Source: Acidobacteriota bacterium (GTDB taxonomy: Bacteria; Acidobacteriota; Terriglobia; Bryobacterales; UBA6623). Taken from it: DNA of 64,000 nucleotides. Below the pieces are notes generated by a model, which searched no databases, was not told where the DNA came from, and saw nothing but the letters and a program-made list of their open reading frames with translations. The position numbers and the translations under genes were made by a program. Numbering within the stretch: position 1 is the first letter of the stretch; every line of letters starts with the position of its first letter. The stretch is from the NCBI GenBank assembly GCA_016125275.1, contig WGMB01000018.1, positions 248,001 through 312,000 of the forward strand, in the 5' to 3' direction. This document shows positions 16,091 to 33,287 of this stretch, piece by piece.

Positions 16091-17986
16091 TCATCCCGCG
16101 CCGTTCTCGTCGAAGGGCAGGGAAGCCAGAGTGTTGGCGATCTCCAGCAGCGCCTTGCCCCGAGCAATCTTGGGGAGTCCTTCGATCGGCTTGGCCGGGT
16201 CTCCAATGGCCTGGAATCGCTTGAGCTCCGTCGCCGTGTAGAGCGACGGACGGTATGGCGCCCACAGCAGCCGGATGTCGTTTCGATCGGCCGCCGCCAC
16301 GAGGTAGGGCAGCTCCTTCTCGTAGATGTAGTCGGAAGCCAAGAACTTTTCGGTGACGATGAGGAAGGCGGCCCGGCAGGTTTCCAGCGCGGCCTTGATC
16401 TGGGCGTCCCACTGGTCGCCCGGCTGAATGCCGCGGTCGGTCCACATCTCCAGCCGGCCGCTGCGAATCAGGGGCTTGAGCATGGTCAGCAGCTCGTCGA
16501 GGTCGGCCTTGTCGGCGTGGCTGTAGCTCACGAAGACTCGATTGCCGCGCTCGGCGGGCGGAGTGGGCTCGACGGCCTCGAAAACCTTCTTGAGGCGGCC
16601 GGTGAGCCGGTTGCCGCCGAGCTGCTGGCCCAGGAACATCGCCTGCTGGGCCGTCGAGGCGACCTTCCAGGCATCGTCCTGCTTCTTCATCTTCATGCAC
16701 TTGCGGTAGAGCGACAGGGCCGGGTCGAACTCCAGCAGGTGCAACCGCGCCTCGGCCTGGGTGGCGAGGCTCCAAAAATCCTGCGCCGTCTGCTGCGCGT
16801 GCTTCAGAGCGAGCTGGGCCATCTTCTGGGCGCCCTGCTCGTCGTCGAAGGCCATCAGCTCGAGGAAGGCCACGTTGATGGCGAGGTAGTAGATCTGCTC
16901 CGACGTCCGGCCGGCCTTGGGCTTGTCGAAGCGGTCGGCGTAGCTATCTAGCGCACCTTGGTAGTGGCTCAAGGCCAGCTCCGCGTCGGCCGGTTCCTGG
17001 TTTTGAATCCAGAGCCTCTTGATTCGGCCGCCGAGGGCTCCCCGTACGTCGGTTCCCACGCTCTGGTGCTTCTCCAGCAGAGAGCGGGCCTCTTTCGGCT
17101 TTCCGTCCCGCTCGAGCGCGAGGGCTGCGTCAACGATCTCCTTCTCCGAAAGATCGACCGGCGCGGCGACGGCGATCTTCACGGCGACCTTGGTCGGCCC
17201 GAACTCCGCCGCCTTGCGCAGAACGTCCGCCTGCGTCTCCTTGGCCCGTTTCGCCAGCAAAGCCTGCTTGAGGAGGACCACGGCATCGTCGGTCGCGGCG
17301 GTCGGCTTGACCATCGACAGGTGGTCTCCGTTGATGACCTTGCACACGGAGGGAGGGAACGGACGCAGGGACGAGTCGCGAGGCACGAACTCGTCCTTCG
17401 TTCCGGCGACCACGGTGAGCAGGAACGGCGGCTTGGCTCCGAATTTCTCCGTCCACCGGCTGCGGAGGTCCCGGACGAAGAGGCCGTCGTGCGCCATGTT
17501 GTCGACTTGGCCGAAACCGCCGAAGAGCCTCGAAAACAGCGACGCCTTGAACAAACCGTCGCTCGGAACGCCGAACATCGTCAGCGAATCCGTCCGCTCG
17601 ACCAGCGAGACGCTGTCCACGAGCGCCTTTTGGACGACCAACCCGCCCATGCTGTGGGCCGCGATGGCCAAGTGTCCGTAGTGGTCGAGAGGGGCCAAGT
17701 CGACCTTCGTCCGAAAGTGCTGCGCCAGCGCGTCAAGCTCCGGGTCCGCGGACCAAATGCCCTTGAGTCCAGGCAAGAGCGAGGTGTTGTAGCCCAGGCT
17801 GTAGATATCCCAGTCCTGCAGTTCCGGGTCGTCTCGGAGGAATTCCGGAAGCTTTGCCCAGGTCGCCGATTCGTTGCCACCGAAGCCGTGGAGGAGGATC
17901 ACGGCCTTTTGGGCGGTGGCCGGTTCGCGGTACGAAACCAACCGCTGGCCGGCGTGCGTGGTCTTATCGTTCGAGGTCGGGGGCAT
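16091..17986 (-). CDS. Alpha/beta hydrolase - TRAFs-binding-like - TIR domain protein
   Basis: A 631-residue three-part protein. Residues 20 to about 260 are a lipase/esterase-like hydrolase with HGFGG near residue 33 and the nucleophile elbow AHSMGG (Ser112). Residues 290-470 are an alpha-helical repeat region resembling the TRAFs-binding/TPR-like domain (ALALERDGKPKEARSLLEKH; LAINVAFLELMAFDDEQGA). Residues 482-631 form a TIR domain: NRVFVSYSHADKADLDELL, then WTDRGIQPGDQWDAQI and SDYIYEKELPYLV, whose Glu (556 or 558) could be the NADase catalytic residue. TIR proteins of this build are often immune effectors, which is inference here. No signal peptide. The start at 17986 is preferred to an upstream TTG (18058). 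It lies 125 bp after ispG on the same strand. Confidence 0.8.
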   Translation of the reverse strand: MPPTSNDKTTHAGQRLVSYREPATAQKAVILLHGFGGNESATWAKLPEFLRDDPELQDWDIYSLGYNTSLLPGLKGIWSADPELDALAQHFRTKVDLAPLDHYGHLAIAAHSMGGLVVQKALVDSVSLVERTDSLTMFGVPSDGLFKASLFSRLFGGFGQVDNMAHDGLFVRDLRSRWTEKFGAKPPFLLTVVAGTKDEFVPRDSSLRPFPPSVCKVINGDHLSMVKPTAATDDAVVLLKQALLAKRAKETQADVLRKAAEFGPTKVAVKIAVAAPVDLSEKEIVDAALALERDGKPKEARSLLEKHQSVGTDVRGALGGRIKRLWIQNQEPADAELALSHYQGALDSYADRFDKPKAGRTSEQIYYLAINVAFLELMAFDDEQGAQKMAQLALKHAQQTAQDFWSLATQAEARLHLLEFDPALSLYRKCMKMKKQDDAWKVASTAQQAMFLGQQLGGNRLTGRLKKVFEAVEPTPPAERGNRVFVSYSHADKADLDELLTMLKPLIRSGRLEMWTDRGIQPGDQWDAQIKAALETCRAAFLIVTEKFLASDYIYEKELPYLVAAADRNDIRLLWAPYRPSLYTATELKRFQAIGDPAKPIEGLPKIARGKALLEIANTLASLPFDENGAG

Positions 17987-21415: not shown

Positions 21416-23032
21416 CTAAGGCAAGGCAAAGACGAACAGGCTCTGCCCGGCGGCGATGGCCACGTGCTGCCGGCCGCGGCTTTCGTAGGCCATTGGGCTG
21501 GCCTGGACGACGCCTCCGAGTTGAATCCGCCACAGCTCTTTGCCGCTCTTGGCGTCGAGCGCCTTGAACCAGCCGTCCTGCGCGCCGGCGAAGACCAATC
21601 CACCGGAGGTCGACAGGAGCCCCGCCCACGCCGGCTGGAAGAGGCGGTGCTCCCAAACCGGACGACCGGTGAGCGGGTCGAGGGCTCGAACCGCCCCGTA
21701 CCAGTTGCTCTCGGTCTGCTCGTTCATGAACATGGAGCCCCAAAAGCGCGTCCCGGGCCGATACTCGGAGGGGCCTTTGTAGTACAGGCTGGAGCCTTCG
21801 CGGCAGGTGACGTAGAACAGGCCCGTGACCGGGCTGAAGCTGGGCGACATCCAGTTGGTTCCGCCAGCCACCATCGGGTAGACCTCGGCCCCCTCCTCAC
21901 TGGGGTCCGTGTTGGGCAGAACCATCGGGCGGCCGCTGTCGTCGAGTCCCTCGGCCCAAGTCTGCTTCACAAAGGCTCTGCCTTGCAGGTACTCGCCCGT
22001 CAGCCGGTCGAGTACGTAGTAGAAGCCATTGCGGTTGGCGGTGACGAGCAGCTTGCGCGGCTTGCCCCGAAACTCCCGGTCGATGAGCACCATCACCTGG
22101 ACGGCGTCCCAGTCGTGCGTGTCGTGCGGCGTGAACTGGAAGTGCCACTTCAGCTTGCCGCTGTCCGCGTCGAGCGCGACCACGGAGTCGGTATAGAGGT
22201 TGTCGCCAGGGCGGACGTCGCCGTTCCAATCGGGGCCGGGGTTGCCCACGCCCACGTAGAGCAGATTCGCGGCAGGGTCGTACGAGGGCGTCACCCAGAT
22301 CGAGCCGCCGCCGGTCTTCCAGGAGTCGCCGCCCCAGGTCTCGTGGCCTGGTTCACCGGGTCCGGGCACGGTATGGAAGCGCCACAGGCGGCGGCCGTCG
22401 GCCACGTCATAGGCGTCGACGAAGCCGCGGATACCGTACTCGGCGCCGGCGATGCCCACGATCACCTTGTTGCCCACCACCAGCGGAGCGTGCGTGCCGG
22501 AGTAGCCCTCGGAGTAGTCGACCATCTCGGTCTGCCAGCGGACGCGGCCGGTCTTGCGGTCGAGGGCGACAATAAAGGAGTCGAGCGTAGCCAGGAAGAG
22601 GCGGTCGCCATGGATCGCCAGCCCGCGGTTGACCTCGCCGCAGCAGGCGATGATCTTGGGCGGCAGCTGGCGTTTGTAGTGCCAGAGCCCGCGGCCGGTT
22701 TCGGCGTCGAGCGCGAAGACCTCGTTCGGCGGGACGGTCAAGTACATCACGCCGTCGTGTACGAGCGGAGTCGTTTCGTGCTTCTGCGTGATGGGCTGCT
22801 GAAACACCCACTTCACCCGCAGGTCGGCGACGTTGCCGGGCGTGATCTCGTCGAGCTTGCTGTGCCGCCAGCCTTCGTAGCCCCCGTTGTAGCTGAGCCA
22901 GTCGGCCGGGTTGTCGAGATCGCGGGCGAGATCCTCGTTGGTCACCTGGGCGGGCGCGGCGATCGGCCACGCCACGAGGGCGAGGGCGAGAAAGGGTGCG
23001 AAAAGGCGGAACGGCATCGGGCTGGATCTCAT
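21416..23032 (-). CDS. PQQ-dependent alcohol dehydrogenase-type quinoprotein
   Basis: A 538-residue periplasmic eight-bladed propeller enzyme with a signal peptide (FRLFAPFLALALVAWPIAAPAQ). It has the vicinal disulfide Cys-Cys characteristic of quinoprotein alcohol dehydrogenases (IIACCGEVNRG), the active-site block GHETWGGDSWKTGG, THDWDAVQV and several tryptophan-docking repeats (ALDAETGRGLWHYK). The Asp of the WDA motif would be catalytic. The residue two positions later is Val, not the extra Asp of lanthanide-type enzymes, so calcium is more likely. Its ATG overlaps the stop of the upstream cytochrome gene as ATGA, so the two are translationally coupled. The cytochrome is the natural electron acceptor. 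Confidence 0.9.
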   Translation of the reverse strand: MRSSPMPFRLFAPFLALALVAWPIAAPAQVTNEDLARDLDNPADWLSYNGGYEGWRHSKLDEITPGNVADLRVKWVFQQPITQKHETTPLVHDGVMYLTVPPNEVFALDAETGRGLWHYKRQLPPKIIACCGEVNRGLAIHGDRLFLATLDSFIVALDRKTGRVRWQTEMVDYSEGYSGTHAPLVVGNKVIVGIAGAEYGIRGFVDAYDVADGRRLWRFHTVPGPGEPGHETWGGDSWKTGGGSIWVTPSYDPAANLLYVGVGNPGPDWNGDVRPGDNLYTDSVVALDADSGKLKWHFQFTPHDTHDWDAVQVMVLIDREFRGKPRKLLVTANRNGFYYVLDRLTGEYLQGRAFVKQTWAEGLDDSGRPMVLPNTDPSEEGAEVYPMVAGGTNWMSPSFSPVTGLFYVTCREGSSLYYKGPSEYRPGTRFWGSMFMNEQTESNWYGAVRALDPLTGRPVWEHRLFQPAWAGLLSTSGGLVFAGAQDGWFKALDAKSGKELWRIQLGGVVQASPMAYESRGRQHVAIAAGQSLFVFALP

Positions 23033-23814
23033 TGCGAAGCGCCCCCTTGGCCGGCGCCCCGTAGCGTGCAGAGGTAGGCGAGCAGGTGGTCCATGTCGGC
23101 CTCGCTGAGGCCGTCGTAGGCGGGCATCAAGGAGGAGCCGGGCTTCTCCACCGCGTCCACCTCGCTCTTGAGGAAGGAGCGCAGGTTCTCGCTTGTATCG
23201 AGCAAGTGGACGCTGTAGGCGTCCTCATTGAGCAGAACGCCGCGGAAGGCTTTGCCCCCTTGGCGCACGACGACTGTGCGGTAGCGGGCCCCGATGTCTT
23301 GGGAAGGCTTGGCGAGGGCCGTGCGAAGCTGCTCGCGCGAGAAGCTCAGGCCCACGGCGGAAAGGTCCGGTCCGAGCCGACCGCCCTCGGGACCGATGGT
23401 GTGGCAGCCGGCGCACCCCTGGGCGGCATAGAGCTGGCGGCCGGCAGAGGCGTCGCCCGGCGTGGCGACACAGGCTTCGCCGGCGTTGACCTCGAAGCTG
23501 CGGACGGCGAGCAGTATCCTCCAGATGGAGTCCTCGTCCATCCAGAGACCGGGCATCTCGGTGCCGGAGACGCCGTTCTGAATGATGCGGAACAGCTCCG
23601 CGTCGGAATTGCCGTGGCGGTGTTTTCGGACGGCCAAGCGCGCCCCGCGGCCGGACTTGCCTTCCATCCCATGGCAGACGCCGCAGTTCAGGCGGTAGAG
23701 CCGCAGCCCCTCCTGGAAGTCAGCCGGGGCGCTGAAGGGATTCCGGTCCCTGTGCTGGGCGGGTGCGGCCAACGCGGCCGCCAAGATCAACAACGGTACT
23801 GCTGCGCGCATCAT
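23029..23814 (-). CDS. Dihaem c-type cytochrome, partner of the PQQ dehydrogenase
   Basis: A 261-residue periplasmic cytochrome with a signal peptide (MMRAAVPLLILAAALAAPAQ). The first haem motif is CGVCH (residues 44-48) in a domain ending EMPGLWMDEDSIW. The second is CAGCHTIG, in a domain resembling the haem-binding module of Planctomycete cytochromes, with VVRQGGKAFRGVLLNEDAY and LMPAYDGLSEADMDHLLAYL. It probably takes electrons from the quinoprotein encoded by the overlapping downstream gene. Two adjacent ATGs (23814, 23811) precede the signal peptide; the ribosome binding site is weak. Confidence 0.9.
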   Translation of the reverse strand: MMRAAVPLLILAAALAAPAQHRDRNPFSAPADFQEGLRLYRLNCGVCHGMEGKSGRGARLAVRKHRHGNSDAELFRIIQNGVSGTEMPGLWMDEDSIWRILLAVRSFEVNAGEACVATPGDASAGRQLYAAQGCAGCHTIGPEGGRLGPDLSAVGLSFSREQLRTALAKPSQDIGARYRTVVVRQGGKAFRGVLLNEDAYSVHLLDTSENLRSFLKSEVDAVEKPGSSLMPAYDGLSEADMDHLLAYLCTLRGAGQGGASQ

Positions 23815-24055
23815 GGACGCCGACAAGAGACTACAGGAACCGCCGGCCGGCGGCAACTGCCGCCGCCGGTCTCAGGTCCGTCCGTAGGCCCCTTGACACT
23901 ATCGCGAGGGGGCCAAGGGGAATATGGGCAAACGGCCCCGAATACAGAAGTAGGGTCAAAAATACTTGGAAGGAAAATACGAACTCCGTAGTAGTATTCC
24001 CCCAGCGCATACCGCACATCCAACACCGAACCGCGAAGTCTGGGAGGAAAAACGC

Positions 24056-27000
24056 ATGTCAGCAGGGGCGGCGCCCGGCCCAAAGCCTGGATTGTTTCAA
24101 CTCGACAAGAAGCTTCTCGATAAGGAATCCAGCTCGCTGGCGGTCCAGATCACGGCCGGCAGCATGGAGCTTCTCGACGCGATCCGGACGGACGCCGTCT
24201 TTCCCAGCGGAGACATCGATCTGTTCCAAGCGTCCCTTCGCGCCGAGACGGCGAAGGACATCGTCTTCGAGACCGGCGGCGGAAAGGTGAGCTTCAGCGC
24301 CGGTGGAGGGGCCTTTGCGGGCCTTGGGCTGCTGGCCGACGCGCGCAAGCGTCTCGAGAAGCTGGGGTTCGGGCAAGCGCTAGAGAACGGGCTGGCCATC
24401 GAGCCGGCCGACGGCTCGCGCTACCTGCTGCTGAGCTGGGGCTACGACGTTCACGGCGCCGCCAAGGGAAGCGTGGCGCTGGGAGCGGCGGGCGGCGTGA
24501 CGTTCGGCGCGGAAGGGTCCCGCGAGGCGGCCTACGCCATGGTGCGGCGAGTCGGCGCACAGGCGAAGGCTCGCAAGACGTTGAGCGAGACGTTTACGAA
24601 CTGGCGGATGCCGTCGCAGGTGAGCTCGCATGCGGACTTGCTCCCCGGTTCCTGGGTCATTACCGAAGTCAGCGGGTCAATCGCGTTGAGCCTGGGCGCC
24701 CAGCTCGGCTACGACTTCAGTTGGGTGCGGGAGCTCGGCGCCGGCGAGCTCAAGGGTGAGATCGGCTTGAAGGTCGCTCTCAACGCCGGCGTGGCGCTCG
24801 GCTTCGAGGCAAGCGGAGAGTACGCGCTGGTCCTCCACCGGGGAGAGGCGGAGTCGGCAAACCGGGTGACGCTGAAGCTCTTCAAGCTCAACCGCAAGAC
24901 GCTGAGCTTCTCCGCCACCGCCGGAGCGACGGTGAAGTCGACCGCGGACCCTCCAGCGACGGCGGACGACTTGATCGCGGCGGTTTTCGGCGTCCACGGC
25001 GCGCAGATCCTCAAGGATCTCGAGACGCTCGAAGCCTGGACCGACCCGGAAGAACCGGTGGGCGAGATGCTCTCGGCCCTGGGGGTGGACTACGGCTTCG
25101 ACCTCCTGCAGCAACTGACCGGTGTGGACGCCCGGAGGGAGCTCGGCAAGGCCCAGTCGAAGCTACAGGGCGCGTTGAAGCGGTGGCAAGAGCTGCCCAA
25201 CGAGCTCTCGGCGTCGCTCTGGAAGCAGCTCGACGAGGTTCTCGGGGCCAAGAACGCGACCGAGCGCAAGAAGATCGAGGCGAAGATCGGCCAGCTTCGG
25301 TCGTTCGTAAACGACGTGGCGCAGATGGACGAGAGCGCTCTACGAGGAGCCATCACCGATCAACTGCGCGACGTCAGCTTCTTCGCCACCCCGGTCGGGC
25401 AATGGCTGCAAACCGTCGCGGGTGACTCCGTGCTCTCTCTACTGGATCGCCAAGCGGAGGTCCGATCCCTGGCCGCCAAGACGGCGGCCGTGCTGGACAA
25501 GGCGTCCGACACGCAGGGCGCCACGGAGGACGTCATTCGCAATATCCAGAAAGTGATGGCGGAACGCCTTCACTTGGACAAGATCGAAGTCTTGGCTAAA
25601 AAGGCGACGCAAAAGGACTTCGACGATATCGACCAGTGGCTCAAGTTGAAGTTGGCGAACTTTCTCGACGAAGGCCTGGCTCAACTGAACTTGGAAAAGA
25701 TTCGGCAGGTCGCCGCGACGATTCATACGCTGATCGGCAAGCGGCAAGAGTTCTATGCCGCCGCCGTCAAGGCCCTCAATCGGACGTATCAGTTCTCGTT
25801 CGCCTACGCCTACCGCCGCTCGACGGCGAAGACGGCCCTACTGGATATCGAGTTGGACTTCAGCGAGAATCCGCAGGTCGTCGGAGCGCTGCTGCAAGCG
25901 GCCGTTCGCGGCGACTTTTCGCGCGTGCTGACGGAGAGCGTCGACGGAGTCCGGCTGAACCAAGCCCGGCTCACGCACGAGGTTCGGCGGCAGTCCTCGG
26001 TGGAGATCGCCCTGCCGCATTTCGACCGCAAGAAGGTGCTTGTCACCCAGGCGCTGGCGACGGTGGACGCGGTGGAGTTGGACGGACGGGTGCTGCTGTA
26101 CGAGCTGAAGGCTTCGGACAAGGTGACGGTCGTCGGCCGCCGCTCGAGCGAGCTGATCGTCGCGGCGAACCTTCCGGTCCGGGCCGGCAGCGGCATCACC
26201 GTGTGGAACCCCGACAAGGGCTTCGTGGGCTACCGCTTCGAGCACATGAAGAAGAAGCTGAAGCGCGAGGAGCTGGAGTTCGAGCTGGAGCCGCTGGTGG
26301 CGGGCTACTTCCCGGATTCGTTCGGAACGGCGGACGACCAGCAGACGCTCTCGGAGTGGATCGGCGCGCTGGACCGCCACATCGATCAGGTGGAGGAGAA
26401 CGGGCCGGACCAGTTCGGCAACACCGTCTTGGGGCTGGAGCTGAGCTACCCGATCCAAACGCTCCACGGCTGGGGCCTGGCGCCGGAGGAGGAAGACAGC
26501 CGGGAGTACCGCGAGCTGTACCGGTCCGTGCAGCGCAGCTTGCGGCAGGTGATCCCCTTCTATTGGTTCGCGGACCCCGACCACTACTCACCGCTCATCG
26601 CGGCGGCGCCGTTGCTGGTCTATCAGTTCCTGCCGATCTCCACGCAGATCAAGCTGGCCGGTTCGACCCTGACCCTCAACAGCGGCGACGAGGTCTTCTG
26701 GGACTATCGGGACCAAAGCAAACTCGACGCGATGGCGCAGTCCTCTACGACGCGACTGGGCCTCGAACGAGCGGTGATGGCGATTCAGCGGAGGTCGCGC
26801 CAGAGAGGGCTGGAGAGAGTGGCCGACGACTACAAGATGGCCACCGCCGCCGGCCTGATCGGCATCGCTCTGGGCGACGGCCGGGACAACCTGGAAAGCC
26901 TGCTGATGGTGGAGGCGGACATCGCCCGCACCGCCATCAAGGCCGGCAAGAAGATGGCGAAGTTCCGCGCCGACGCAGCGGCCAAGCCTGAGGAGGCGCT

Positions 27001-27277
27001 CAAGGAGCTCACGGCATTCGGCGAGAAGCTAACCAAAGCCTTCAACGAGAAGATCCGCAGCCGGTATGACTCGGTGCCGCTGGAGCCGATTGGGCCGATG
27101 ATCCTGGTGGAGGCCTCTCGCGCGATGCAGGGCCAAGCCCAGGCCGCCCCGCCCAACGCCTTGCTCGACGTGACGGTCTACAGGCAGGGCGCCAAGTTCC
27201 CGCCGACGGACTTTCCGCCCGTCTCCGCCGACCTGGTGGCGCAGGAGCGCCTGATCGCGGCCGGAGCGCGGGGCTAG
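24056..27277 (+). CDS. Uncharacterised 1073-residue protein
   Basis: I do not recognise this protein. It has no signal peptide and no clear transmembrane helix. Residues 30-270 are rich in glycine and alternating hydrophobic residues, as in beta-hairpins (GKVSFSAGGGAFAGLGLLAD; GSIALSLGAQLGYDFSWV; GEIGLKVALNAGVALGFEAS). Residues 290-580 are largely charged alpha-helix with coiled-coil character (KAQSKLQGALKRWQELPNEL; RKKIEAKIGQLRSFVNDVAQ). Residues 590-800 are mixed. The last third is again helical with a beta end. The start at 24056 has GGGAGG about 9 bases upstream. The leader (23815-24055) is unusually AT-rich for this window. It stands alone, and its TAG stop shares a CTAG palindrome with the stop of the convergent DUF3604 gene. 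Coding reality is strongly supported by length. Confidence 0.85.
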   Translation: MSAGAAPGPKPGLFQLDKKLLDKESSSLAVQITAGSMELLDAIRTDAVFPSGDIDLFQASLRAETAKDIVFETGGGKVSFSAGGGAFAGLGLLADARKRLEKLGFGQALENGLAIEPADGSRYLLLSWGYDVHGAAKGSVALGAAGGVTFGAEGSREAAYAMVRRVGAQAKARKTLSETFTNWRMPSQVSSHADLLPGSWVITEVSGSIALSLGAQLGYDFSWVRELGAGELKGEIGLKVALNAGVALGFEASGEYALVLHRGEAESANRVTLKLFKLNRKTLSFSATAGATVKSTADPPATADDLIAAVFGVHGAQILKDLETLEAWTDPEEPVGEMLSALGVDYGFDLLQQLTGVDARRELGKAQSKLQGALKRWQELPNELSASLWKQLDEVLGAKNATERKKIEAKIGQLRSFVNDVAQMDESALRGAITDQLRDVSFFATPVGQWLQTVAGDSVLSLLDRQAEVRSLAAKTAAVLDKASDTQGATEDVIRNIQKVMAERLHLDKIEVLAKKATQKDFDDIDQWLKLKLANFLDEGLAQLNLEKIRQVAATIHTLIGKRQEFYAAAVKALNRTYQFSFAYAYRRSTAKTALLDIELDFSENPQVVGALLQAAVRGDFSRVLTESVDGVRLNQARLTHEVRRQSSVEIALPHFDRKKVLVTQALATVDAVELDGRVLLYELKASDKVTVVGRRSSELIVAANLPVRAGSGITVWNPDKGFVGYRFEHMKKKLKREELEFELEPLVAGYFPDSFGTADDQQTLSEWIGALDRHIDQVEENGPDQFGNTVLGLELSYPIQTLHGWGLAPEEEDSREYRELYRSVQRSLRQVIPFYWFADPDHYSPLIAAAPLLVYQFLPISTQIKLAGSTLTLNSGDEVFWDYRDQSKLDAMAQSSTTRLGLERAVMAIQRRSRQRGLERVADDYKMATAAGLIGIALGDGRDNLESLLMVEADIARTAIKAGKKMAKFRADAAAKPEEALKELTAFGEKLTKAFNEKIRSRYDSVPLEPIGPMILVEASRAMQGQAQAAPPNALLDVTVYRQGAKFPPTDFPPVSADLVAQERLIAAGARG

Positions 27278-29652
27278 TTGGCCCAGACGGGGCTGGACCA
27301 GGCCTGCACCAGGTCGAGCTGTTCGACCCGCAGGTAGTAGTAGTCGCCCGGCTGCATCGCTTCGCGCTGCTCGAAGTCGTACTCGACGTCGAGCGGCGCG
27401 GCCGGGCTCACCAGCTCCGCTTCCACGGTGAATTGCAGGGGCACGCCCATCTTCTCGATGTAGCCGTCCTTGACCTCCGCCGGGGCCGGCGCCGACGTGC
27501 GGAAGGAGCCGTTGCGCCGTAGCTCGGCCAGCGGAATCCGCACTTCATGGACGCCCCAGAGGGGGTCGTCGCGCCGCAGGGTGAGCGCGTCGCCCTGCGC
27601 CTGCGAGATGTCGACCAGCACGCCGTCGCGGTCGTTCGAGGTGGTGGCATTGTAGAAGACGACCCGGGCGCCGTCCTGTGAGACGCTCTCGAAGGAGTTG
27701 TCCTGGTTGAGATAGCGCTTCAGCACGAGCCGGCCGGCATCGGCGCGGATTTCGCCGCGCGCCATGGAGGTGTTGGCGCGGCGCTGGTAGTCGTTATCGC
27801 TCCAAGCGATGCGCACCAGTGAAGAGCCGGAGTCGCGGCCCGGGTGGAGCGAGTGGACGACCTGGTTGTTCTTGAGCAGGTCGATGCGCAGAATCGGGGC
27901 CTCACCGGAAACCTTCGCGCGGATCTTGGCCGAGTCGGCCTTGTAGCGCGGCAGGTCGCCGCCCATCGGCTCCCCGTTCACCGAAAAGTCCAGCAGCATG
28001 CGGCTGTTGCCGGTGACGCCGTAGGTCCGTCGGTCGAGCATGGAGGCCCACAGATCCTCCCGGTCGTTGGAATCGGCGTAGACTCCCGTGAGCGGGTTCG
28101 TCATCGTGTAGATGAGGCCGGGGTTGGCGTAGCCCCAGCTCACGGTGTGATTGTCAGCCGAGGCCGTTGCGCCCAGCCGCTGCCCGCTCTCCAGGTGCTT
28201 CTGGAAGGACTCCTCGAAGACGCCGTGCACCGAGGCGATCTCGAACAAGCGCTCCAGACGAGGGTCTGTCTCGTGCTGCCAATCCGGCGGCCCGCCTCCG
28301 ATGTGCGGGATGACCATGGCGCGCTTGCCGGTGCGGCGCAGGATCTTCATCATCTCGCCAACCGGCGCACGCCAGGATTCGGGCTCGAGGTCCATGGTGG
28401 TCGGCGCCTCGTCGTCGGCATAGATCACGTTGTGGTGGCCGCCGGCCTGTGTACCCACCGAGTATTCGTAGCCGAGGATCGGCGTGAAGCCCTTCCAGCC
28501 CTTCATCGTCTTCACGCCCTCAATGAGCTGCGGCCAGAAGTCCTTCACGTACTTCTGTTCGATGGCCAGGTAAGGGCCGGTGGCCTGTAGGCCGGTCTGA
28601 TGAGGCGTGAGGGCTCCGAAGTCGAGCAGCCCGATCTGACGGGCCAGCAGGTAGAGCTCGATGGGCACGCCGCGCCCGTCGGAGAGGTAGGTGTGCTGGT
28701 GCAGGTCACCGAAGTAGATCCGTTGCCCGGGCGTGCGGGAGATCCAGATGGGGTTGCTGACCCCTTGCACGCGACCGTCCGCCGTGCGCACGGTGATGCG
28801 GGCGACTCCCTCGCCGGTCGCCACGACGTTCTCGGCCACGTAGTGCAGCAGGTCGGGGTCGAAGCGCAGCTCGCTCGAGCCGACCGCGTCGGATTCCATC
28901 ACCAGCTCGAGATTCTGGTAGTCCTTCGCCAGAGAGTTCCAGGCGTCGGTCGGCACGACCTCCACGTCGAACGGCTCGCGCTGACCGACCACGGCGGGCG
29001 CCTTGACCTTGAGTTTCGCCAGCGGCCCTCCGATGATCTTCATGTAGGCGTCGCCGCCGTATCCCAAGACCTTTTTCTCCTCCGGCTGAGTGAAGGCGAT
29101 CCGCAGATTGAAGAGGTTCTCGGCGTAGAACTGCATGCGTACGCCCTTCGCGCCGCCGATGTCGAAATAGACCTTGTCGCCCTGCTTGAGCTCTCCGTTG
29201 CGCACGATCAAGCCGGCGCACTTGCGGTAGGGGAAGACCGGGTGCTCGTTGCGCTGGACGTCATTGGGATAGATGACGGTGTCGATCTCCACGCCGGCAG
29301 CCGAGGTCTCGACGCCGAAGAATGCCGGTTCCGAGGCGTCGGTGTCCTGCAACTCCTCCACGTCGGAGGTGAAGTGCTTCCAGACCTCGATCGACTCGCC
29401 GGGCTTGGCGCCGAGGTCGCCCACGGTGTATTCGATGCGAATGCGGTGGCGGCTGCCCATCTCCGCGACCGGCGGGGTCAGCAGCTTGACGGTCCCATGC
29501 AGCGGGAAGTCCGGGGAGAACCAAGCGCCCGGGCGGTATTCGATGCGGCCGTCAGCCGGGGAGGGTCGCTCCCCCCAGACAGCGGCGGCGGCAAACGCCA
29601 CGACGAGAAGGCCGGCGATGAGATGGGGGCGTCGCAAAACGCCTCCCATCAT
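27274..29652 (-). CDS. DUF3604 domain protein (PHP-like), exported
   Basis: A 792-residue protein with an N-terminal signal (LIAGLLVVAFAAAAVWG). The central region carries the DUF3604 signature YFGDLHQHTYLSDGRG, followed by DFGALTPHQTG, GYEYSVGTQAGGHHNVIYAD, VIPHIGGGPPDW and SADNHTVSWGYANPG. These supply the His/Asp residues expected for a metal-dependent PHP-like hydrolase site. The N-terminal 300 residues and C-terminal 150 look like beta-sandwich domains. The function of DUF3604 is unknown; it is frequent near sulfatases. The gene lies 16 bp downstream of the sulfatase, indicating one operon. Confidence 0.88.
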   Translation of the reverse strand: MMGGVLRRPHLIAGLLVVAFAAAAVWGERPSPADGRIEYRPGAWFSPDFPLHGTVKLLTPPVAEMGSRHRIRIEYTVGDLGAKPGESIEVWKHFTSDVEELQDTDASEPAFFGVETSAAGVEIDTVIYPNDVQRNEHPVFPYRKCAGLIVRNGELKQGDKVYFDIGGAKGVRMQFYAENLFNLRIAFTQPEEKKVLGYGGDAYMKIIGGPLAKLKVKAPAVVGQREPFDVEVVPTDAWNSLAKDYQNLELVMESDAVGSSELRFDPDLLHYVAENVVATGEGVARITVRTADGRVQGVSNPIWISRTPGQRIYFGDLHQHTYLSDGRGVPIELYLLARQIGLLDFGALTPHQTGLQATGPYLAIEQKYVKDFWPQLIEGVKTMKGWKGFTPILGYEYSVGTQAGGHHNVIYADDEAPTTMDLEPESWRAPVGEMMKILRRTGKRAMVIPHIGGGPPDWQHETDPRLERLFEIASVHGVFEESFQKHLESGQRLGATASADNHTVSWGYANPGLIYTMTNPLTGVYADSNDREDLWASMLDRRTYGVTGNSRMLLDFSVNGEPMGGDLPRYKADSAKIRAKVSGEAPILRIDLLKNNQVVHSLHPGRDSGSSLVRIAWSDNDYQRRANTSMARGEIRADAGRLVLKRYLNQDNSFESVSQDGARVVFYNATTSNDRDGVLVDISQAQGDALTLRRDDPLWGVHEVRIPLAELRRNGSFRTSAPAPAEVKDGYIEKMGVPLQFTVEAELVSPAAPLDVEYDFEQREAMQPGDYYYLRVEQLDLVQAWSSPVWAN

Positions 29653-31190: not shown

Positions 31191-33287
31191 ATGTCGCGCC
31201 GGTTGCTCGCTTTTCTCGTGATCGTGCTGGCGGGTTGCGTGGGCCGCAGCGTTCCCACTGAGGGCTATGACACGTGGCGGGTCTACGGCGGCGGCAAGGA
31301 CAACATCCGCTACTCGCGCCTGGCCCAAATCAACCGCGACAACGTGAAGGACCTGCAGGTCGCTTGGACGTACGACACGCAGGACGCCACCGAAACCTCG
31401 CAGATCCAGTGCAACCCGATCGTGGTCGACGGTCTGCTCTACGGCGTCAGCCCGCAGATCCGCATCTTTGCCGTGGACGCCGCGACCGGCGAGGAGCGCT
31501 GGACCTTTACCCCGACGCTCGACGGCCGCCGCCTGACGGGCACCCAACGCGGCGTCGTCTACTGGAGCGACGGAGCGCAAGACAGCCGCATCCTCTTCAG
31601 CGCCGAGCACCTGCTGTTCGCGCTCGACGCCAAGACCGGCCTTCCGGTGGAGAGCTTCGGCCAAGGCGGCTCGATCGACCTACGAGAGGGTTTTGAGCGA
31701 CCGACGGAGTCGCTCAACGTCTCCAGCCGCTCGCCGGGCGTGCTCTACGGCGACTTACTGCTGATGGGCAGCGTGGTCAGCGAGGGGCTGCCGAGCGCTC
31801 CGGGCGACATCCGGGCTTTCAACGTGCGGACCGGCGAACGCGTCTGGAGCTTCCATACGATCCCTCACCCCGGAGAGCCCGGCTATGAGACTTGGCCGGC
31901 GGACTCCTGGAAGGTCGCCGGAGGCGCCAACGCTTGGCCGGGCCTGACCCTGGACGAAGAGCGGGGCCTGCTGTACGCCGCCACGGGCTCGGCGGCGTTC
32001 GACTTCTACGGCGCCAATCGGCACGGCGACAACCTCTACGCCAACTCGCTGCTGTGTCTGAAGGCGGAGACCGGAGAGCTGGTCTGGAGCTTCCAGGCTG
32101 TCAAACATGACGTCTGGGACCGGGACTTTCCTACGCCGCCGGGACTGATGACCCTGATCCACAACGGCAAACGCGTGGACGCCGTGGCGCAGTCCACCAA
32201 GTCCGGACACATCTTCGTCTTCGACCGCGTGACGGGCGAGTCGCTGTTTCCGCTGGAGGAGATCGAGGTTCCGGCCTCGGACATCCCCGGCGAGATGACG
32301 GCCAAGACGCAGGTTCTGCCGACCATGCCTGAGCCGTTTGCGCGCCAAAGGCTGACCGAAGACATGCTCACCGACCGCACGCCGGAAGCCCACAAGGCCG
32401 CCGTCGAGCGTTTCCGCAAGCTGCGCAGCGAAGGGCAGTTCGCGCCGCCCAGCCGCGAGGGAACCATCGTGTTTCCGGGGTTCGACGGCGCCGCGGAGTG
32501 GGGAGGGCAAGCCTTCGACCCCGAAACCGGCCTCTACTACGTGAACTCCAACGAGATGGCCTGGATCCTGCGCATGGTCGAGCAGAAGCAGGGCGGCTCG
32601 GTGAATGGCCAGCGTCTCTACCAGCGCAACTGTGCGGCTTGCCATTTGGATGATCTCTCCGGCACGCCGCCGGACTTTCCGCCGCTCCAGCATTTGACGC
32701 TGAGCCAAACGCAGATTGCGGAGATCGTGAAGAAGGGCAAGGGACGCATGCCGGGCTTCGGTCACCTGGGCGACGGCGCGGTCGAGTCGATCGCTCGGTT
32801 CGTCAAGAGCGGCGTCAGCGATCCCATCAAGGCCGCCTCACTGTCGCCCTACGACCAAGCGTTCACCACGGACGGCTACAACAAGTTCTTGGACCCCGAG
32901 GGCTATCCGGCGATCAAGCCGCCTTGGGGGACGCTCAACGCCTACAACCTGGACAGCGGCGAGCTCGTCTGGAAGATCCCGTTCGGCGAGTTCCCGGAGC
33001 TGGCCGCCAAGGGCTGGAAGAACACGGGCACGGAAAACTATGGGGGCCCGGTCGTGACGGCCGGGGGCCTGCTCTTTATCGGCGCGACCAACCACGACCG
33101 CAAGTTCCACGTGTTCGATAAGGAGACCGGCGTGCTGCTGTGGGAGACCACGCTGCCGGCCGGAGGCCGGGCGACGCCGGCTGTCTACGAGGTCAACGGC
33201 AAGCAGTTCGTAGTGATTGCGGCCGGCGGCGGCAAGAGCGAGGTGGCTCCGTCGGGGGGCAAGTACGTCGCCTTCAGCCTGCCTTGA
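31191..33287 (+). CDS. PQQ-dependent dehydrogenase lipoprotein with inserted cytochrome c domain
   Basis: A 698-residue quinoprotein of the membrane glucose-dehydrogenase-like type. The N-terminus is a lipoprotein signal (LLAFLVIVLAGC). Propeller repeats such as WRVYGGGKDNIRYSRLAQIN, HPGEPGYETWPADSWKVAGG, HDVWDRDFPTPP and FDPETGLYYVNSNEMAW mark the PQQ domain. A cytochrome c module is inserted between blades, with CAACH at residues 481-485 and GRMPGFGHL providing the axial Met region, before the last propeller part (PPWGTLNAYNLDSGELVWKI). The built-in haem would accept electrons from reduced PQQ. The sugar or alcohol substrate is not known. It ends 4 bp from the convergent NagB-like gene. Confidence 0.9.
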   Translation: MSRRLLAFLVIVLAGCVGRSVPTEGYDTWRVYGGGKDNIRYSRLAQINRDNVKDLQVAWTYDTQDATETSQIQCNPIVVDGLLYGVSPQIRIFAVDAATGEERWTFTPTLDGRRLTGTQRGVVYWSDGAQDSRILFSAEHLLFALDAKTGLPVESFGQGGSIDLREGFERPTESLNVSSRSPGVLYGDLLLMGSVVSEGLPSAPGDIRAFNVRTGERVWSFHTIPHPGEPGYETWPADSWKVAGGANAWPGLTLDEERGLLYAATGSAAFDFYGANRHGDNLYANSLLCLKAETGELVWSFQAVKHDVWDRDFPTPPGLMTLIHNGKRVDAVAQSTKSGHIFVFDRVTGESLFPLEEIEVPASDIPGEMTAKTQVLPTMPEPFARQRLTEDMLTDRTPEAHKAAVERFRKLRSEGQFAPPSREGTIVFPGFDGAAEWGGQAFDPETGLYYVNSNEMAWILRMVEQKQGGSVNGQRLYQRNCAACHLDDLSGTPPDFPPLQHLTLSQTQIAEIVKKGKGRMPGFGHLGDGAVESIARFVKSGVSDPIKAASLSPYDQAFTTDGYNKFLDPEGYPAIKPPWGTLNAYNLDSGELVWKIPFGEFPELAAKGWKNTGTENYGGPVVTAGGLLFIGATNHDRKFHVFDKETGVLLWETTLPAGGRATPAVYEVNGKQFVVIAAGGGKSEVAPSGGKYVAFSLP

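What the first reader, a model, noticed from the sequence alone, without database searches (positions are those of the whole stretch)
24056..27277. Large uncharacterised cytoplasmic protein of 1073 residues
Seen: a single 3.2-kb gene with a strong ribosome binding site, no signal peptide, a glycine-rich beta-hairpin N-terminal third, a charged helical middle and a mixed C-terminus. It matches no family I know and stands alone, with an AT-rich leader. Inference: alternating hydrophobic/glycine strands next to long coiled coils could mean a self-assembling or pore-forming protein, so it is a candidate for an undescribed system.
Basis: partly seen in the sequence, partly recalled or inferred. Interest (0 to 1): 0.65.

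Follow-up and report, generated by a model that had tools for sequence, protein, structure and literature searches.

The report
Undescribed large acidobacterial cytosolic protein family
This gene makes a real, large (1073-residue) soluble protein of a family that matches no named protein family or solved fold I could test; it was found only in Acidobacteriota, and in some relatives it sits in a row with genes for a fat-splitting enzyme, a membrane protein and a cell-wall-cutting enzyme, which hints at work on the cell envelope, but its function is not shown.

Summary
Window 24056-27277 (+) is a genuine 1073-codon gene with GGAGG 8 nt before its ATG, no signal peptide and no transmembrane helix. 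It matches nothing in Pfam, NCBIfam, PADLOC, PHROGs or PDB sequences. Full-length relatives (31-41% identity) occur patchily in Acidobacteriota; none turned up in plasmids, phages or viral contigs, and other phyla could hardly be searched. In its own family (18 genomes) only this genome has it. A seven-sequence AlphaFold2 model (pLDDT 73, pTM 0.64) shows a beta / helical / beta / helical order with unusually long amphipathic strands; Foldseek finds no PDB or viral match of value. The 'long coiled coils' were not seen.

New lead: in the window's own subclade, five of nine relatives (four independent contexts) have a patatin-type phospholipase as direct neighbour; four also have one multi-pass membrane protein family, two an N-acetylmuramoyl-L-alanine amidase, one a VanY-like peptidase. 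Chance would give about 0.04 Pfam-patatin neighbours in 27 genomes; four were seen. One relative lies beside a T6SS, but T6SS presence is not enriched (25% versus 29%).

Best guess (confidence 0.3): a soluble lipid- or membrane-binding partner of patatin phospholipases in an envelope module. In the window genome it stands alone.

The parts
24043..24047 (+). Shine-Dalgarno GGAGG, 8 nt before the ATG
   Evidence: sequence
23956..24055 (+). AT-richer leader (49% GC against 66% for the window)
24056..27277 (+). the gene: 1073-residue soluble protein of an undescribed family
24131..24940 (+). first beta region, residues 26-295, strands up to 28 residues, amphipathic; lacking in part from the short divergent branch
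   Evidence: AlphaFold2 model; parity test; alignment
24962..25777 (+). first helical region, residues 303-574 (least confident part of the model at 331-357 and 501-549)
25787..26260 (+). second beta region, residues 578-735; holds D597 and H641 (invariant in 25 members), R645, R678 and D688
26264..27130 (+). second helical region, residues 737-1025 (largely well modelled)
27155..27259 (+). C-terminal pair of strands, residues 1034-1068
23029..23814 (-). upstream neighbour, cytochrome c, with the PQQ dehydrogenase gene 21416-23017; divergent, not part of the system
27274..29652 (-). downstream neighbour, DUF3604 protein, convergent, 4 nt overlap; not part of the system

Best explanation
A real member of an undescribed family of large cytosolic beta/alpha proteins, so far seen only in Acidobacteriota. 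Most likely it is a soluble, elongated lipid- or membrane-binding partner (scaffold or carrier) that brings patatin-type phospholipases, and in some genomes a multi-pass membrane protein and a peptidoglycan amidase, to the inner face of the cell envelope, for envelope lipid and wall remodelling or controlled lysis. SHOWN: the gene is real and the family exists; its patchy distribution; no family or fold match; beta-alpha-beta-alpha order in a medium-confidence model; amphipathic long strands; recurring adjacency to patatin, membrane-protein and amidase genes in the window's own subclade. INFERRED: lipid or membrane binding, physical partnership with the phospholipase, the envelope role, and that the lone window gene does the same job with partners encoded elsewhere (this genome has four patatin matches and one membrane-protein homologue at other loci).
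For: Patatin as immediate same-strand neighbour in L049, L050, L013 and L015 (Pfam E 3.6e-29 for L049, 2.2e-27 for L013, 3.8e-17 for L015; L050 by phmmer 1e-232 to that of L049) and, in L014, a patatin-like protein homologous (6e-62) to a Pfam-positive one of the window genome. Four different patatin subfamilies, so separate juxtapositions. Expected from about 4 patatin matches per genome and roughly 6000 genes: about 0.04 in 27 genomes. Membrane-protein family directly downstream in L013, L015, L049, L050, and two genes downstream of a very divergent possible member, L081. Amidase_2 next in L013 and L015, VanY-like in L014. These full-length relatives lie in the window's subclade (10 rows, support 88/86). 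Amphipathic strands. No transmembrane segment or signal peptide. Partner homologues at other loci of the window genome.
Against: Most members, the window gene included, have no such neighbour. Patatins elsewhere in these genomes have no membrane-protein or amidase gene beside them, so this is not a fixed module. No fold match supports a lipid-binding fold. The second model, with a different lead sequence, was poor (pLDDT 62.7, pTM 0.38). Amphipathic long strands also occur in ordinary soluble sheets.
Confidence: 0.3

Rival explanations
1. Pore-forming or membrane-lytic effector: a soluble precursor whose long amphipathic hairpins insert into a membrane, working with phospholipase and amidase as a lysis or antagonism cassette.
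For: Strands of 20-28 residues with one hydrophobic face; neighbours that attack phospholipid and peptidoglycan and show no obvious signal peptide; patchy distribution, absent from 17 other genomes of the family.
Against: No match to any pore-former in Pfam or the PDB; no recognisable immunity or protease partner; some of the long strands carry many charges; most members stand alone.
Confidence: 0.2
2. Enzyme with an unrecognised active site: invariant D597 and H641 with R645, R678 and D688 on strands of the second beta region form a catalytic or ligand site.
For: These polar residues are kept in 21-25 of 25 members at 21-37% identity to the window protein.
Against: No known catalytic motif; a polar cluster may be structural; the model is not good enough to place side chains.
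Confidence: 0.15
3. Structural, self-assembling scaffold with no lipid role.
For: Large protein with extended beta sheets and no enzyme match.
Against: No internal duplication between the two beta or the two helical halves; gene neighbours in the subclade are lipid and wall enzymes.
Confidence: 0.15
4. Type VI secretion effector or accessory protein.
For: In L086 (JACADU010000169.1) the gene lies next to TssK, TssM, TssL, TssB and TssC-like genes (one TssK confirmed by Pfam); phospholipases and amidases are classic T6SS effectors.
Against: T6SS presence (VipA): 5 or 6 of 20 genomes with a strong match, against 116 of 399 in the class; only one adjacency in about 30 loci.
Confidence: 0.05
5. 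Chance open frame or pseudogene.
For: None found; a few relatives carry one in-frame stop, but the window copy does not.
Against: Conserved open frames in many genomes, normal codon-position GC.
Confidence: 0.01

Closest known systems
Patatin-like phospholipases (PF01734; some with DUF3376, PF11856)
   Same: direct gene neighbours of five relatives in the window's subclade
   Different: partner genes, not homologues: the family itself has no patatin match
Large lipid transfer proteins (vitellogenin / apolipoprotein B / MTP type)
   Same: from memory only: a beta region, a helical region, then more beta sheet, with long strands and an amphipathic face
   Different: no Pfam match and no Foldseek match to any solved structure; no secretion signal
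MACPF/CDC and other beta pore-formers, bacterial gasdermins
   Same: from memory only: soluble proteins with long amphipathic hairpins
   Different: no sequence or fold match
Type VI secretion effectors
   Same: one relative beside a T6SS cluster; linked phospholipase and amidase genes in others
   Different: no genome-level association, no known T6SS effector domain
Outer-membrane beta barrels (best, but poor, Foldseek hits)
   Same: long antiparallel amphipathic strands
   Different: no signal peptide, TM-scores 0.04-0.24, large helical regions

Membership tests
Large lipid transfer proteins (vitellogenin type) | Pfam-detectable LLTP N-terminal domain | tested here: not met
   no Pfam match at E<=5 for the window protein; at E<=0.1 only scattered unrelated single hits among 25 members
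Large lipid transfer proteins (vitellogenin type) | fold match to solved LLTPs | tested here: inconclusive
   none among the listed Foldseek hits, but the model is of medium confidence
MACPF/CDC pore-formers | MACPF/CDC sequence or fold | tested here: not met
   no Pfam match; none in the listed PDB fold hits
Outer-membrane beta barrels | N-terminal signal peptide | tested here: not met
   no signal-like start in 17 members examined by hydropathy and eye; no dedicated predictor was at hand
Outer-membrane beta barrels | barrel fold match | tested here: not met
   TM-scores at most 0.24 with rmsd about 20 A or more
T6SS effector/accessory | genetic linkage to T6SS | tested here: not met
   one locus of about 30
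T6SS effector/accessory | co-occurrence with T6SS across genomes | tested here: not met
   5-6 of 20 against 116 of 399
T6SS effector/accessory | T6SS-dependent secretion | not testable with these tools
   needs an experiment
Patatin-like phospholipase | patatin domain | tested here: not met
   no PF01734 match
Known anti-phage defence proteins | match to PADLOC models | tested here: not met
   none for the window protein; one weak hit in one of 25 members
Phage or virus proteins | match to PHROGs, phage records, viral contigs | tested here: not met
   (two weak single-member PHROG hits)

The most novel reading that the evidence does not exclude
The family is the core of an undescribed acidobacterial envelope module in which a soluble giant beta/alpha lipid-handling or pore-forming protein works with patatin phospholipases, an 'LGAPFW' membrane protein and a peptidoglycan amidase, with a fold not yet in the PDB.
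Probability: 0.2. Interest if true: 0.65.

Novelty: categorically new. Interest (0 to 1): 0.4.

Why it matters
If the lead holds, it names a new class of large soluble proteins that handle or breach membranes together with phospholipases in one of the most abundant and least understood soil phyla, and gives defined partner genes to test. Without the lead it is still a 1000-residue protein family, seen in many acidobacterial genomes, that no library or fold search used here recognises. The 'categorically new' rating refers to the family lying outside every library searched; it does not mean that a new kind of system has been shown.

Tried and rejected
Pfam, NCBIfam, PADLOC, PHROGs and PDB searches of the protein or its alignment: nothing of value. 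Foldseek: no usable match; best hits are beta barrels and levivirus maturation proteins with TM about 0.04-0.24, taken as mere long-strand resemblance. Second AlphaFold2 run on L082: poor. T6SS link: rejected by co-occurrence. Internal duplication: none. Clean empty site in family f1: not found, because the two flanking genes have their orthologues at separate places there. Wider patatin context: no membrane-protein or amidase gene beside other patatins. L021 was a false member (Ser/Thr kinase). Relatives on plasmids, phages and viral contigs: none. Literature searches found nothing on this family or its membrane partner.

Full report
Check of the observation. The open frame at window 24056-27277 (+) codes for 1073 residues from an ATG preceded by GGAGG (24043-24047) at 8 nt. 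It is alone: the upstream gene is a divergent cytochrome c with a PQQ dehydrogenase, the downstream one a convergent DUF3604 gene that overlaps it by 4 nt. The 100 nt before it have 49% GC against 66% in the window. No sigma-70-type promoter, terminator or Rfam family was found there. The gene itself has the GC and codon-position pattern of a native gene.

Family. The window protein has no match in Pfam or NCBIfam even at E up to 5, and in PDB sequences only one chance-level hit at E 0.8. Twenty-five members scanned one by one gave only scattered single hits in Pfam, PADLOC and PHROGs. A profile of the 25 found no PDB chain better than E 0.028. The genome (7.55 Mb, 20 contigs) has one copy. 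Relatives occur in 11 of 396 genomes drawn from the phylum, the window genome included and one a false hit, in 42 of 399 of the class and, at E below 1e-30, in 30 of 257 of the order. In the window's own family, none of 17 other genomes has it. The named relatives are all Acidobacteria, Terriglobia, Bryobacterales or Solibacteraceae. Plasmid, phage and viral collections gave none. Other phyla were touched only by two degenerate-pattern scans of genome contigs, so restriction to Acidobacteriota is likely but not proved.

Anatomy. A seven-sequence AlphaFold2 model reached mean pLDDT 72.9 and pTM 0.64. Its order is beta (26-295), helices (303-574), beta (578-735), helices (737-1025) and two last strands. 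Several strands are 20-28 residues long. Over 14 members the strands alternate hydrophobic and other residues far more than shuffled ones do (sum of contrasts 4.87, null 2.45 +/- 0.48), and helices used as control do not. No member examined has a signal peptide or a clear transmembrane segment. R262, D597, H641 and Q826 are invariant in 25 members. The two halves are not a detectable duplication. Foldseek against the PDB and a viral library found nothing with a meaningful TM-score. A repeat with a different lead sequence gave the same order of secondary structure but a poor model (pLDDT 62.7), so the fold is a sketch, not a structure. A short divergent branch lacks part of the first beta region.

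Neighbourhoods. In most relatives the gene stands alone or beside unrelated genes. In the subclade that holds the window protein (10 rows, support 88/86), five of the nine others have a patatin-type phospholipase next to the gene: L049 and L050 (same genus), L013 (more than one patatin stretch), L015 (with DUF3376) and L014 (a remote patatin, homologous to one elsewhere in the window genome). Four have the same membrane-protein family directly downstream, with an invariant LLSLGAPFW motif near the C-terminus. L013 and L015 continue with an N-acetylmuramoyl-L-alanine amidase, and L014 has a VanY-like protein upstream. A very divergent possible member, L081 (profile E 1e-8), has a relative of the membrane protein two genes downstream. 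With about 4 patatin matches per genome and roughly 6000 genes (an estimate from genome size), about 0.04 adjacent Pfam patatins are expected in 27 genomes; four were seen, in three genera. The membrane protein pairs with an amidase without our family in G577 and on a Caballeronia plasmid, so that pair exists apart from our family. The window genome has four patatin matches and one membrane-protein homologue, all at other loci.

Tests of readings. T6SS: one relative, L086, sits beside TssK, TssM, TssL, TssB and TssC-like genes, and the window genome has a T6SS elsewhere. But the sheath gene VipA occurs in 116 of 399 class genomes and in 5 or 6 of the 20 with a strong family match, so there is no association. 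Mobile or viral origin: nothing supports it. Insertion or loss in the window's lineage: not resolved, because the flanking genes are not neighbours in related genomes.

Mechanism. The best-supported reading is a soluble lipid- or membrane-binding partner of patatin phospholipases in an envelope module. The adjacency and the amphipathic strands are shown; the binding, the partnership and the role are inferred. Pore formation, an unrecognised enzyme and a structural scaffold remain open.

Verdict. A real, undescribed protein family with a modest but statistically solid lead to envelope lipids in its relatives, and none in the window itself. Orphan families of this kind are common, which keeps the interest moderate.

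Noticed in passing
window 16091-17986 (-): A 631-residue protein joins an alpha/beta hydrolase-like N-terminus, a TPR-S sensor domain and a C-terminal TIR domain (Pfam), a make-up typical of conflict or defence effectors.
   Followed up: no
L049:11215-12468, L013:7445-8617, L015:12428-13489; L126:8853-9983 in the window genome; L137:7983-9254 (Caballeronia plasmid): A widespread unnamed multi-pass membrane protein family (motif LLSLGAPFW near the C-terminus) with no convincing Pfam or NCBIfam match, several times next to N-acetylmuramoyl-L-alanine amidase genes.
   Followed up: partly
L013:351-4238: A 1295-residue protein with more than one patatin stretch, beside the family gene.
   Followed up: no
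L068, L071, L073-L076, L078, just upstream of the short divergent family members: A conserved small protein (81-95 residues, starting like MGFALWI and holding HEYRPMG) precedes the family gene on the same strand in seven genomes.
   Followed up: no
L086:1-9518 (JACADU010000169.1): An acidobacterial T6SS cluster with two TssK-like genes lies next to a family member.
   Followed up: partly
window 21416-23017 (-), 31191-33287 (+): Two PQQ-dependent dehydrogenase genes in the window; the first is one of 34 similar matches in this genome.
   Followed up: no
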